Source: Bacteroidota bacterium (lineage in GTDB: Bacteria; Bacteroidota; Bacteroidia; Bacteroidales; JAADGE01). From it: a stretch of 35,122 bases of DNA. How positions within the stretch are numbered: position 1 is the first letter of the stretch; every line of letters begins with the position of its first letter. Positions 20,111-28,595 of this stretch are shown one piece after another. Made by a program: the position numbers and the translations under genes. The stretch spans positions 1 through 35,122 of the forward strand of contig JAJRUH010000148.1 in the NCBI GenBank assembly GCA_024277895.1, in the 5' to 3' direction. Below the pieces are notes generated by a model. The model was not told the DNA's origin and ran no database searches. It saw nothing but the letters and a program-made list of their open reading frames with translations.

Positions 20111-20132
20111 TTTGGGTTGTTTGATTGATTAA

Positions 20133-20188
20133 TGTTTAGTGTTTAGCGTTTAGTGTTTAGTGTTTAGCGTTTAGTGTTTAGTGTTTAG
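20133..20188 (+). repeat. eight tandem heptamers YGTTTAG
   Basis: Eight uninterrupted copies of TGTTTAG or CGTTTAG (six T, two C) run from 20133 to 20188. The last copy contains the stop codon (complement of tta at 20185-20187) of the four-helix-bundle gene, so that coding region ends inside the array. Relative to the CTAAAC octamers on the other side of the gene the orientation is opposite, so the two arrays form an imperfect inverted pair. The same heptamer occurs alone at 13821-13864. Confidence 0.93.
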
Positions 20189-20559
20189 TGTCTTTTTTTC
20201 TTATTAAGTTGAGATATTCTTAATTTATAAAGTTTGTTTACTAATTCTTCTATTGCAGGTCTTTGTTCATTAACATTTTCTGTTGAAATATATCCTAAAT
20301 CGACCGCAAGTATTAATTGATTTAGCACTTCCAATAAACTGCCGTATGCTATTTCGGTATATCGTGCTTGCTCTATACCGGATTGTCTTGATGATCCTTC
20401 TGCAATATTTGAAGAAACCGAAATTATTGCTCTGCGTATTTGTGATGTTAATCCGTATTTTTCTTCTTTCGGAAATTCTTCACTAATTTTATAAATGCTT
20501 ACGGCTAATTTTCGTGATAGTTGCCAAACATCAAGTTTCTCAAATGAAAATTTTCTCAT
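20185..20559 (-). CDS. four-helix-bundle protein (23S rRNA intervening-sequence type)
   Basis: A 124-residue protein of the bIVP/S23 family (TIGR02436-like), first known from intervening sequences within 23S rRNA genes. It is related in fold to the Avd accessory protein of diversity-generating retroelements. Family marks are the start FEKLDVWQLSRKLAVSIYKI, the central YGLTSQIRRAIISVSSNIAEGSSR near residues 35-58, and the long helix ARYTEIAYGSLLEVLNQLILAVDLGYIS. No role in translation or uridylate synthesis is known, and it is not in an rRNA gene here. It lies 73-74 bp from pyrEF and pyrB, and both spacers are filled by GTTTAG-type repeats. That suggests a small inserted element that leaves the operon co-directional. 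Confidence 0.93.
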   Translation of the reverse strand: MRKFSFEKLDVWQLSRKLAVSIYKISEEFPKEEKYGLTSQIRRAIISVSSNIAEGSSRQSGIEQARYTEIAYGSLLEVLNQLILAVDLGYISTENVNEQRPAIEELVNKLYKLRISQLNKKKRH

Positions 20560-20590
20560 AATATATAATTAATCTGTAAATCATACAACA

Positions 20591-20630
20591 CTAAACCGTT
20601 AAACAGTTAAACAACTAAACAGTTAACCGG
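20591..20630 (+). repeat. octamer array YTAAACNN
   Basis: Four tandem 8-bp words (CTAAACCG, TTAAACAG, TTAAACAA, CTAAACAG) are followed by a degenerate fifth (TTAACCGG). The array abuts the pyrEF stop codon (complement at 20632-20634). It shares the TAAAC core with the heptamer array on the other side of the four-helix gene, but in inverted orientation and with 8-bp instead of 7-bp period. Confidence 0.8.
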
Positions 20631-20631
20631 T

Positions 20632-21996
20632 TTATCCTTTATAAATTTTCCAAGCTCGTTCTTTATATTCTTTTGCCGCCGCTTCGGAGTTTTCGGCTTC
20701 AATAATTCCTCTTCCTACAATTATACAATCGGCTCCGCCTTGCATTGCATCTTCAACGGTTGTGTATTGCTGCCCGGTTGCATCTGTTCCGGCTTTTAAT
20801 TTCACACCCGGCATAAGCATTAATTGTCCTTTCGGGATTTTATTTTTCAGTTTTCTTAATTCTTCTTTTCCGTTTGCGTGGCAAATATATCCGCTGACCA
20901 CTTCGTGATATTTTTCGCCCATATTAAAGACATTTCGCGTGTAGGTTTCATTCATTAAATTTCCCTTTGATGACATTTTTGCCAAAAGAAACGAGCTTCT
21001 GCCTGTTACTCCGTTGAATAAACCCTGCAATATGCCTTCTCCGGGCGTTGCGTGAACAGTTATAAAATGTGCCCAAGTTTTTATCTTATAAATTCCTCCG
21101 GTGTATTGTTTTTTTACGGTATTTCCGATGTCGGCAAATTTACGGTCTTCAAAAATCATAAAATCGTATTTTATGGCGTATTCTTTGAGTTTTACGATAA
21201 ATTCGGGATTAAAATCTTTGAGAATGTCGATATGGGTTTTGAGCATTACTATATGTTTTGCCGTTTTATTGAGTATTTCAAATAAATCTTTTTGATTATC
21301 GACATCAAGCGACAAAATAAGGTTTGATTTTTTCTTTTCGATTTTATCTTTCAGAAGTTTTGTTAAATGGTTTTCGAGATTTTTTCCGGTTTTATTATCG
21401 TAACTTATTTTTCCGGTAAAATTTTTAATTCTTGTTTTTTGGTCGTTTGTAATTCTGTTATTTTCTTTCAGAACTTCAATAATTTTATCTAAATTTATTA
21501 AAGCGTGAAGATTGTATCCTTGTTGTGCAAGATATTTTTTGATATTGTTACTTCTGTCTATCAGAACAAAAAAATCGGTAATTTCAAGACCTTCTGTTTT
21601 GAATTTTTCAGCTGTTTCGAGCAAACTGTCTCCGGTAGTAATTAAATCGTCAATAATCAAGACCTTGCTTCTTTCTTCAAATTTTCCGATTACGGCATTT
21701 TTTGTTCCGTATGCCTTTTCTTCTTTTCTAATGTAAATCAGCGGTTTATCAAGAATGTCGGCAACAAGCGTTGCAACAGGCAAAGCCGTATAAGGTACAC
21801 CAGAAATATAATCAAAATCTAAATTTTTTATTTCATCAGCAATTAAATAAGCTGTTTTATTGAGCAGTTCGGGGTAGGAAATCATATCTCGCAAATCGAA
21901 ATAAAAAGGTGACTTATGCCCGCTTTTAAGCGTAAATTCTCCGAATTTTACAGCTCCTATATCGTGAAGCCTGAGTATGAAGTATTCTTTTTTCAT
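20632..21996 (-). CDS. pyrEF: UMP synthase: orotate phosphoribosyltransferase/OMP decarboxylase fusion
   Basis: A 454-residue bifunctional enzyme that converts orotate and PRPP to OMP and then to UMP. Residues 1-~200 are OPRT: KSGHKSPFYFDLR, SGVPYTALPVAT, RKEEKAYGTKN, and the PRPP motif VLIIDDLITTGDS at 112-124. From ~225 the decarboxylase domain follows. Its catalytic tetrad is visible as K253 (MLKTHID) and D284, K286, D289 (EDRKFADIGN), with MPGVKLKAG and ADCIIVGRG as phosphate-binding strands. Both domain order and decarboxylase subtype are those of animal and plant UMP synthase. Many bacteria instead have separate pyrE and pyrF. It lies 24 bp before pyrC's stop in the minus-strand operon and ends at the octamer array. 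Confidence 0.95.
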   Translation of the reverse strand: MKKEYFILRLHDIGAVKFGEFTLKSGHKSPFYFDLRDMISYPELLNKTAYLIADEIKNLDFDYISGVPYTALPVATLVADILDKPLIYIRKEEKAYGTKNAVIGKFEERSKVLIIDDLITTGDSLLETAEKFKTEGLEITDFFVLIDRSNNIKKYLAQQGYNLHALINLDKIIEVLKENNRITNDQKTRIKNFTGKISYDNKTGKNLENHLTKLLKDKIEKKKSNLILSLDVDNQKDLFEILNKTAKHIVMLKTHIDILKDFNPEFIVKLKEYAIKYDFMIFEDRKFADIGNTVKKQYTGGIYKIKTWAHFITVHATPGEGILQGLFNGVTGRSSFLLAKMSSKGNLMNETYTRNVFNMGEKYHEVVSGYICHANGKEELRKLKNKIPKGQLMLMPGVKLKAGTDATGQQYTTVEDAMQGGADCIIVGRGIIEAENSEAAAKEYKERAWKIYKG

Positions 21997-25330: not shown

Positions 25331-25829
25331 TATTTCACAGAGTTATTTTTAATTTTATTTCACACAGATTGCTCGGATTGCACAGAGTTATTTTAGTTCT
25401 TTTCACACAGATTGCTCGGATTGCACAGAGTTATTTTGGTTTTGTTTCACACAGATTGCTCGGATTTCACAGAGTTATTTTAGTTTTGTTTCACACAGAT
25501 TGCTCGGATTACACAGAGTTATTTTAATTTTATTTCTCACAGGTTGCTAGGATTTCACAGAGTTATTTTTGGTTTTGTTTCACACAGATTGCTCGGATTT
25601 CACAGAGTTATATTAGTTCTTTTCACACGGATTGCTCGGATTGCACAGAGTTATTTTGGTTTTGTTTCTCACAGATTTCTCAGATTTCACAGAATTATTT
25701 TTGGTTTTGGTTCTCACAGATTGCTCGGATTGCACAGAGTTATTTTAGTTCTTTTCACACAGATTTCTCGGATTGCACAGAGTTATTTTAGTTTTGTTTC
25801 TCACGGATTTCTCGGATTACACAAAAATT
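25331..25829 (+). repeat. tandem array of ~44-bp units, about 11.5 copies
   Basis: The anchor word CACAGAG (or CACAGAA) recurs at 25336, 25381, 25424, 25468, 25512, 25556, 25601, 25644, 25688, 25733, 25776 and, degenerate, 25820. Spacings are 43-45 bp. Each unit reads CACAGAGTTATTTT, a T-rich spacer with TTTTGTTTCAC or CTTTTCAC, then ACAGATTGCTCGGATT. Units differ by scattered substitutions, so the array is old and not a recent expansion. There are no unique spacers. It fills the gap between the CoA-type Nudix gene, whose stop codon at 25817-25819 lies in the last half-unit, and the trmB start. A related array lies at 28410-28595. Confidence 0.93.
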
Positions 25830-27789: not shown

Positions 27790-28407
27790 CTAACAAAAAA
27801 AATACTTTAAACTTGTATATGTTCTTAATTTATATCCCGACAATTTCTGATTATCACACCATTCGACTTTTGATATTCCTTCTTCGATTTGGGGAACCGG
27901 AGTTTCGTTTCCGGAATATTGCATATTAAACCAATGAGTTTTTTTAAGTGCTTTTTTGTTTTTGAAATCGTAGATATGAAAAGAGGGTTCTGCTTTGCCG
28001 GTTATTTTAAGTCCGGATATTCCGCATTCTTCTTCAACTTCTCTTATTGCCGCAGTTTCGGGAGTTTCGTTTTTTTCAATTTTTCCTTTCGGCAAATCGG
28101 GTTTTTCGAAACGGTGAATTATGAGCAATTCATTTTTTGAGTTTTTCACAAGTCCTCCGGCTGCTTCAATATATTTAAAATAGGATTTAAAATCCTTGAA
28201 AAGTTTTTCTAAATCGGGGTGTTCAAAACTTATTTCATCGATGCTTTCTTTTTCAAAAAAAGTATTCAGAATATTGCTCATTCTGTCGTTACACTTGTGA
28301 ATAAAGGGCTCGTCAATTTCAAGATTTTCTACCATATCTTCAAATTCAGGAGTAGTTTCCCAAAGGGTTATTTTTCGGGAATTATGATATATAGTGATTT
28401 TTTTCAT
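27790..28407 (-). CDS. Nudix hydrolase domain protein
   Basis: A 205-residue protein with an N-terminal part of about 85 residues of unknown role, followed by a Nudix domain. The domain begins AAGGLVKNSKNELLIIHRF and has a canonical box GKIEKNETPETAAIREVEEECGI near residues 108-130, with all catalytic Glu present. The LPKGKIE start of the box resembles diadenosine-polyphosphate and inositol-polyphosphate hydrolases, but substrate cannot be read reliably. It ends with a hydrophobic/aromatic LKYFFC. Upstream lies the second tandem-repeat array and then tex. The two Nudix genes of this block are not close paralogues. Confidence 0.88.
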   Translation of the reverse strand: MKKITIYHNSRKITLWETTPEFEDMVENLEIDEPFIHKCNDRMSNILNTFFEKESIDEISFEHPDLEKLFKDFKSYFKYIEAAGGLVKNSKNELLIIHRFEKPDLPKGKIEKNETPETAAIREVEEECGISGLKITGKAEPSFHIYDFKNKKALKKTHWFNMQYSGNETPVPQIEEGISKVEWCDNQKLSGYKLRTYTSLKYFFC

Positions 28408-28409
28408 TT

Positions 28410-28595
28410 TGTTTCACACAGATTGCACGAATGACACAGAGTTTTTTTGTTTTTTTCACACAGATTGCACAGATAGCACAGAGTTTTTTTGTTTTGTTTC
28501 ACACCGATTGCACGGATGACACAGAGTTTTGTTTTTTTGTTTCACACAGATAGCACAGATAGCACAGAATTTTTTTGTTTTTTTTCACACAGATT
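28410..28595 (+). repeat. tandem array of ~43-bp units, about 4.5 copies
   Basis: CACAGAG/CACAGAA anchors recur at 28435, 28477, 28520 and 28563 (spacing 42-43 bp). Each unit holds three CACRGA-like words about 9 bp apart (for example CACAGATTGCACAGATAGCA then CAGAG), followed by a T-rich tract of 15-19 bases. It is the same family as the array at 25331-25829, in the same orientation, but with GCACAGATAGCA in place of GCTCGGATTGCA. It fills the gap between the tex stop (28598) and the Nudix start (28407). Confidence 0.92.

What the first reader, a model, noticed from the sequence alone, without database searches (positions are those of the whole stretch)
20133..20630. Candidate mini-element: four-helix-bundle gene between inverted GTTTAG/CTAAAC arrays inside the pyr operon
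Seen: a 124-codon bIVP/S23-type gene splits pyrEF from pyrB. On one side lie eight YGTTTAG heptamers, the last containing the gene's stop codon. On the other lies an octamer array of YTAAACNN in inverted orientation that abuts the pyrEF stop. Known: proteins of this family occur in 23S rRNA intervening sequences and resemble the Avd partner of diversity-generating retroelements, but free-standing copies have no established function. Inference: the ~500-bp segment is a compact inserted unit whose ends are built from short GTTTAG words rather than classical inverted repeats.
Basis: partly seen in the sequence, partly recalled or inferred. Interest (0 to 1): 0.72.

Follow-up and report, generated by a model that had tools for sequence, protein, structure and literature searches.

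The report
Operon guest gene bracketed by word-repeats
A small gene of unknown function sits inside a nucleotide-synthesis operon between two arrays of one short DNA word pointing in opposite directions, and many of its relatives sit in other operons between arrays of their own words, so it looks like a tiny genetic passenger whose protein may read those words.

Summary
In detail: a 124-aa S23/bIVP gene (PF05635) lies between pyrEF and pyrB, with eight YGTTTAG heptamers over its stop and an inverted octamer array before its start. GTTTAG is local: no other S23 gene of the genome has it. The layout is wider. In 228 S23 loci (mostly Bacteroidota, 12 cyanobacterial, one Gemmatimonadota, one Alphaproteobacteria), 78 cluster representatives were tested: the left flank matches the reverse complement of its own right flank in 46, versus 82/6006 mispaired; control genes 13/242. 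A fresh phylum sample is weaker: 9/30 versus 12/870. The G-rich strand is 5' in 39/42 inverted cases. S23 is sense in co-directional gaps 191:6. Gene (dN/dS 0.06-0.14) and array cores are constrained. Words follow S23 protein lineage to other sites. Two junctions show filled, decayed or array-only, and empty states in relatives. One Azospirillum 23S rRNA intervening sequence has the same layout. I read the unit as a free-standing counterpart of the rRNA IVS, an operon passenger whose ends are word arrays, probably recognised by its own S23 ring. Binding and mobility are inferred. S23-rich genomes without a reverse transcriptase exist. GxxExxY genes also have flanking repeats.

The parts
20185..20559 (-). 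S23/bIVP four-helix-bundle gene, 124 aa
   Evidence: PF05635 E 4e-36, TIGR02436 112.5 bits vs cut-off 24; AF2 four helices, pLDDT 93; best PDB matches 2GSC, 2RLD
20592..20626 (-). 5' array of the unit (G-strand words, GTTTAAC/GTTTAGT, 8-nt pitch) between pyrEF stop and S23 start
   Evidence: TRF period 8; pairs with the 3' array in the RNA fold, z -4.87
20129..20191 (-). 3' array of the unit (C-strand words CTAAACA/CTAAACG, 7-nt pitch), overlaps the S23 stop codon and ends before pyrB
   Evidence: TRF period 7, 9 copies; pattern hits
20632..21996 (-). pyrE-pyrF fusion, upstream host gene of the operon
   Evidence: TIGR01740, TIGR00336
19208..20110 (-). pyrB, downstream host gene of the operon
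   Evidence: TIGR00670 371.9 bits
13816..13863 (+). gene-less array of the same word (CTAAACA) upstream of a HypF-type gene (name by recall), 6.3 kb away; the array is absent upstream of the orthologue in 6 of 6 relatives read
   Evidence: TRF, genome search, relatives

Best explanation
The segment 20129-20626 is an S23 unit: one S23 gene bracketed by two arrays of the unit's own short word in opposite orientation, sitting as a sense-strand passenger in a host operon. It is the free-standing counterpart of the 23S rRNA intervening sequence (IVS). Shown: the bracketing here, the matching of the two arms in many relatives, their polarity (G-strand 5', C-strand 3'), the sense bias, constraint on gene and array cores, travel of the word with the S23 lineage to other sites, empty and decayed sites, and the same layout in one rRNA IVS. 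Inferred: the word is the recognition site of the unit's own S23 ring (each 7-8-nt repeat one contact), the two arrays mark the ends of what is moved or kept together, and arm pairing plus host RNase processing lets host cistrons tolerate the insert. The enzyme that moves it is not encoded in the unit and remains unknown.
For: Own-word matching of the arms: 46/78 cluster representatives at score >=15 versus 82/6006 mispaired, 0/5000 permutations; control genes 13/242, size-matched ORFs 12/133; fresh phylum sample 9/30 versus 12/870. Period 7 or 8 in 99 of 105 array-bearing S23 gaps of the order set. G>C in the 5' arm 39/42. Sense 191 versus antisense 6 between co-directional neighbours; 107 versus 2 in the order set alone. 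dN/dS medians 0.06-0.14 at four sites. Array columns vary 0.02-0.075 on average versus 0.26 at four-fold sites, with AGA / TCT fixed or nearly so at 7-nt pitch, at two Chryseobacterium sites. Same word with S23 of >=65% identity at sites without homologous neighbours: 25/42 pairs outside the Chryseobacterium-rich block versus 217/7739 below 35%. Filled, decayed or array-only, and empty sites. S23 in Azospirillum 23S rRNA with inverted word arrays. Ring: 2GSC and 2RLD hold 5 chains each, and a paper on 2GSC is titled as five four-helix bundles (reference list of PMC10053308, passage).
Against: 27 of 78 representatives pass neither the inverted nor the direct threshold. The fresh sample is clearly weaker: 9/30 inverted, 2/30 direct, and only 4 of 60 flanks reach array score 12. 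In the order set other gaps of the same short loci also carry arrays in 7 of 28, against 105 of 237 next to S23. Nine representatives match better in direct than in inverted orientation. Mismatches between arms show no excess of G-U-compatible changes (150 versus 148). Six S23 pairs of 71-78% identity differ in word (L002, L037, L178 against L180, L181), so the protein does not fix the word strictly. No binding, movement or processing was observed and no target-site duplication was identified. GxxExxY genes also carry flanking repeats, so arrays may be made by something not specific to S23. Some pairs scored as different sites may be one site, because neighbours were called mechanically.
Confidence: 0.6

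Rival explanations
1. RNA-stem passenger: the arrays matter only because they pair in the polycistronic RNA and close the S23 reading frame into a loop that RNase III can cut out, as in rRNA IVSs; the protein is incidental.
For: Window unit folds with an array-array closing stem, z -4.87, 0/100 shuffles as good; inverted orientation in 42 of the 51 matched representatives; one rRNA IVS with the same layout; [quoted passage not shown]
Against: No wobble excess in arm mismatches; 9 of 51 matched representatives are direct; the protein is under purifying selection; words follow the protein lineage.
Confidence: 0.35
2. Autoregulation: the S23 ring binds the G-strand array just upstream of its own start codon, much as TRAP binds spaced NAG triplets (comparison from recall), and limits its own translation; the unit is otherwise an ordinary operon gene.
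For: 5' polarity of the G-strand 39/42; AGA core at 7-nt pitch upstream of the start; ring-forming homologues.
Against: The 3' array is conserved at least as strongly (mean variability 0.022 and 0.057 against 0.074 and 0.075 on the 5' side) and carries the complement; the clean empty sites lack both arrays.
Confidence: 0.3
3. Arrays are generic intergenic microsatellites of these genomes and S23 genes merely happen to lie among them.
For: Arrays without S23 exist: window 13816; 20/299 control gaps score >=12; 7/28 in the order set. PMC4679880 and PMC4692102 describe heptamer arrays in Cyanobacteria and Bacteroidetes or Xanthomonas and Nostoc; the term S23 does not occur in their main texts (passages).
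Against: Mispairing controls, control genes and shuffles; word tracks protein lineage; arrays missing from clean S23-less junctions.
Confidence: 0.07
4. Retro-mobility: a reverse transcriptase acting in trans copies the S23 RNA, the relation to Avd being functional, and gene-less 3'-type arrays are 5'-truncated copies.
For: Fold match to Avd in 8UB7 and 4DWL (probability 1.00, TM about 0.75, but Foldseek E 0.1-0.4); sense bias; the array upstream of the HypF-type gene is of the 3' type only.
Against: No RVT_1 match in G000 with 9 S23 loci, nor in G005 (9) or G009 (10, only 77% complete); RT presence is unrelated to S23 presence, 23/45 versus 7/15.
Confidence: 0.12

Closest known systems
23S rRNA intervening sequence with S23 ORF (for example Coxiella helix-45 IVS, PMC4990558, passages)
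   Same: Same protein family; ORF between complementary ends; heptameric repeats (GACAGAT) reported just before the ORF
   Different: Lies in a protein-coding operon, not in rRNA; arrays on both sides are the ends; excision not tested
Avd of diversity-generating retroelements
   Same: Four-helix fold, weak sequence similarity (24.4 bits to NF033474, cut-off 80)
   Different: No RVT_1 match in the genome; template and variable repeats were not looked for
Heptamer repeats: TAACTGA (PMC4679880), GGGAATC (PMC4692102), cyanobacterial STRR (recall; listing)
   Same: Short 7-nt intergenic arrays in overlapping taxa
   Different: The passages seen follow named words and make no link to S23; here the word goes with the S23 lineage and stands on both sides of the gene
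GxxExxY genes (TIGR04256) with flanking repeats
   Same: Small genes in the same genomes with repeats on both sides (13/20 direct, 9/20 inverted)
   Different: More often direct; in the 6 of 40 flanks with an array the period was 5 or 9-11, not 7-8

Membership tests
S23/bIVP protein family (PF05635, TIGR02436) | Profile match above curated cut-off | tested here: met
   123.9 bits vs 33.8; 112.5 vs 24
S23/bIVP protein family (PF05635, TIGR02436) | Four-helix bundle fold | tested here: met
   AF2 model, 2GSC TM about 0.8
S23/bIVP protein family (PF05635, TIGR02436) | Pentameric ring | not testable with these tools
   Only inferred from 5 chains in 2GSC and 2RLD
23S rRNA IVS element | Complementary ends closing the S23 ORF | tested here: met
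   RNA fold z -4.87; inverted arrays
23S rRNA IVS element | Location inside a 23S rRNA gene | tested here: not met
   Between pyrEF and pyrB
23S rRNA IVS element | Removal by RNase III | not testable with these tools
   needs RNA work
DGR Avd | Associated reverse transcriptase | tested here: not met
   No RVT_1 match in G000, 95.7% complete
DGR Avd | Equivalog profile above cut-off | tested here: not met
   24.4 bits vs 80
Classical transposon / IS | Encoded transposase | tested here: not met
   The S23 ORF has only PF05635 and no other ORF of 80 aa or more lies wholly in the segment
Classical transposon / IS | Defined terminal inverted repeats and target-site duplication | tested here: inconclusive
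   Ends are word arrays; no duplication seen by eye in filled/empty comparisons

The most novel reading that the evidence does not exclude
S23 proteins are a large class of word-reading rings: each lineage recognises its own short word repeated at 7-8-nt pitch, and gene plus two word arrays forms a minimal passenger element without a recombinase of its own. The elements colonise intercistronic gaps of operons across phyla; rRNA IVSs, and perhaps the 'IVP' genes found in CRISPR operons, are just units that landed there.
Probability: 0.4. Interest if true: 0.87.

Novelty: new variant of a known kind. Interest (0 to 1): 0.75.

Why it matters
S23 genes are widespread in Bacteroidota (a match in 114 of 148 genomes sampled), and the function and origin of IVS elements are called unclear in PMC4990558 (passage). 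A link between the protein and a lineage-specific word on both sides gives a direct, cheap test of what the protein binds, may explain some unnamed heptamer arrays, and suggests that S23 genes inside CRISPR or biosynthetic operons can be guests rather than parts of those systems. In nine searches (open-licence PubMed Central only) I found no statement of this link outside the rRNA IVS.

Tried and rejected
GTTTAG as the signature of all units: rejected, it occurs only in this contig. Resident reverse transcriptase as necessary partner: not supported for present genomes. Phage origin: no tblastn match of one S23 protein (L001) in 50,697 phage records at E 1e-3. Wobble test for RNA pairing: no support. 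Recent insertion of the pyr unit: not favoured by the genus trees, which are single-gene and weakly supported in places. Exclusivity to S23: rejected, GxxExxY genes have flanking repeats of their own.

Limits of the counts. Neighbours are greedy ORFs, not curated calls. Loci are not independent: the named set is mostly Chryseobacterium, and the single-linkage clustering at 60% put 81 loci in one cluster. The threshold 15 was chosen after a first look (one search listed 16); the fresh set was scored with it unchanged. Array conservation used 13 of 14 purC/purF-site loci (one with a late start left out) and 21 of the 23 carA/carB-site references printed (L112 and L116 left out by me). The pyr-site dN/dS rests on 2 usable pairs of 3. 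Part of the output was cut. The S23 and RT counts per genome were copied by hand into.

Full report
Check of the observation. The protein is a clear S23/bIVP member, predicted as a four-helix bundle, with 2GSC and 2RLD as closest solved structures and Avd of diversity-generating retroelements further off.

The word is not general, the layout is wider. The genome has 9 S23 matches, 5 intact and 4 partial or with stops. None of the other 8 has GTTTAG arrays. Reading their flanks shows other words: GGGATTAG with its complement at L002, CAGTTGG on both sides in direct orientation at L004, CAAGG-type left and CAACCTG right at L005, CTCAAAT-type at L001. In the arm test 3 of the 9 (window included) are inverted, 2 direct, and 4 (L005 and the broken L006, L007, L009) pass neither threshold.

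Wider sample. I gathered S23 loci from the order, from named genomes, nearly all Bacteroidota, and 14 from plasmids: 12 cyanobacterial, one Gemmatirosa, one Azospirillum. After 4 duplicates were dropped 228 remained. In the order set 105 of 237 S23-adjacent gaps carry an array scoring 12 or more, 73 of period 7 and 26 of period 8; dinucleotide shuffles gave 9 of 474; gaps at pyrB loci 2 of 61; but other gaps in the same short loci 7 of 28. In the named set it is 36 of 131 versus 14 of 289 control gaps, in the plasmid set 15 of 27 versus 2 of 7.

The two arms belong together. For 78 cluster representatives I scored the left flank against the reverse complement of the right flank. Own pairs reach 15 in 46 of 78, mispaired in 82 of 6006, and none of 5000 permutations reached the observed mean; direct matches are 11 of 78 versus 48 of 6006. 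By the better orientation 42 are inverted, 9 direct and 27 neither. Control genes in the same loci reach it in 13 of 242, size-matched ORFs in 12 of 133. A fresh sample of 30 loci from the phylum, scored unchanged, gave 9 of 30 inverted versus 12 of 870 mispaired and 2 of 30 direct versus 2 of 870; only 4 of its 60 flanks reach array score 12. The effect is real there but weaker.

Polarity and orientation. In the 42 inverted representatives the 5' arm has more G than C in 39, also where the unit is antisense to its host genes, as in L159 and L164. Between co-directional neighbours S23 is sense in 191 and antisense in 6; 13 further loci have mixed neighbours (210 loci with both neighbours called; 107 to 2 in the order set). 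Control genes have both neighbours on their own strand in 240 of 352, 31 of 43 and 12 of 13 in the three sets.

Constraint. dN/dS medians are 0.06-0.14 at four sites. At two Chryseobacterium sites (purC-S23-purF and carA-S23-carB; gene names are my reading of the neighbouring translations) the array stretches vary 0.02-0.075 per column on average against 0.26 at four-fold sites, and the fixed or nearly fixed positions recur every 7 nt: AGA on the 5' side, TCT on the 3' side. So the arrays are kept at a fixed pitch, beyond what the divergence of these genes would leave unselected.

Words travel with the protein. Among loci without homologous neighbours, S23 pairs of 65-75% identity share words in 90% of 220 pairs (mostly the two sites of one Chryseobacterium subfamily), those of 45-55% in 22%, those of 25-35% in 2%. 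Leaving L091-L158 out, 25 of 42 pairs at 65% or more share words, 56 of 121 at 55-65%, 33 of 374 at 45-55%, and 217 of 7739 below 35%. L263 and L264 of genome G013, 88% identical with different upstream neighbours, are an example. Exceptions: six pairs between L002, L037, L178 and L180, L181 (71-78% identical) have different words.

Presence and absence. At the pyr junction, read in 12 genus genomes and two outside, G000, G009 and G012 hold gene and both arrays, G010 the gene end and its right array before a contig end, G001 a gutted gene with decayed arrays; G002, G006, G007 and the more distant G055 have neither; G011, G003, G004 and G008 have other sequence, partly other words, without S23; the G053 junction is not comparable. 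At an ABC-transporter junction (8 loci read) G000 and G008 are filled, G005 has the CAGTTGG array without gene, G012 a remnant, G009, G002 and G027 neither, and G022 other sequence. At a third junction (11 loci read) G000, G009 and G011 are filled, G005 has a broken gene with one array, G012 and G008 traces; in G001, G003, G006 and G007 the following gene differs and G002 is cut by a contig end, so this site offers no clean empty state. Single-gene trees place filled and empty genomes interleaved, so old insertion with repeated loss is likely for the pyr unit. The gene-less CTAAACA array upstream of the HypF-type gene in the window is absent from 6 of 6 relatives read.

Link to rRNA intervening sequences. 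The Azospirillum lipoferum 4B hit (L169) lies in a 23S rRNA gene and its S23 ORF is flanked by inverted GAGGACGG-type arrays. PMC4990558 (passages read) reports GACAGAT heptamers before the S23 ORF of the Coxiella IVS, complementary ends, RNase III cutting in that stem, and mobility only as a hypothesis. The window unit also folds with its arrays as closing stem. I therefore regard the unit as a free-standing relative of the IVS, not as an IVS, because it does not lie in rRNA.

Mechanism. I consider most likely that the word arrays are read by the unit's own S23 ring, at both ends. In favour are pitch, constrained core, both-sided matching and co-travel. Arm pairing in RNA is possible for inverted units but shows no sign of being selected pair by pair (no wobble excess). 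A resident reverse transcriptase is not needed in the genomes seen. How a unit reaches a new site is open. GxxExxY genes in the same genomes also have flanking repeats, more often direct, so the maker of such arrays may be a host process used by more than one passenger family.

Noticed in passing
window 25332-25823 and 28397-28595: Long 43-44-bp arrays built of CACAGAT-type words, with no GxxExxY match on this contig; similar words flank some GxxExxY genes elsewhere.
   Followed up: partly
L357-L376: GxxExxY genes have flanking repeats: direct match in 13 of 20, inverted in 9 of 20, versus 27 and 12 of 380 mispaired.
   Followed up: partly
G000:C164, G003:C37, G032:C400, G018:C24: S23 and GxxExxY genes lie within 2 kb of each other in four genomes (places); not tested against chance.
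   Followed up: no
L161, L165, L167: S23 genes sit inside CRISPR operons of cyanobacterial plasmids (cas6-S23-cas4 twice, cas10-S23-cmr3), with word arrays at their ends; PMC10910872 expands the IVP abbreviation in a figure legend on CRISPR-linked genes (passage).
   Followed up: partly
window, L140, L121, L159: Several units sit in nucleotide-synthesis operons: pyrEF/pyrB, purC/purF, carA/carB, nrdB/nrdA; whether more than chance was not tested.
   Followed up: no
L057, L058 (G003, G004 pyr junction): The S23-less junction holds a short foreign-looking remnant plus AACTTTT-type words, not identified.
   Followed up: no
L004 flanks: About 45 bp next to the CAGTTGG arrays are also repeated directly on both sides of this S23 gene, as if the unit had been inserted into or duplicated a longer stretch.
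   Followed up: no
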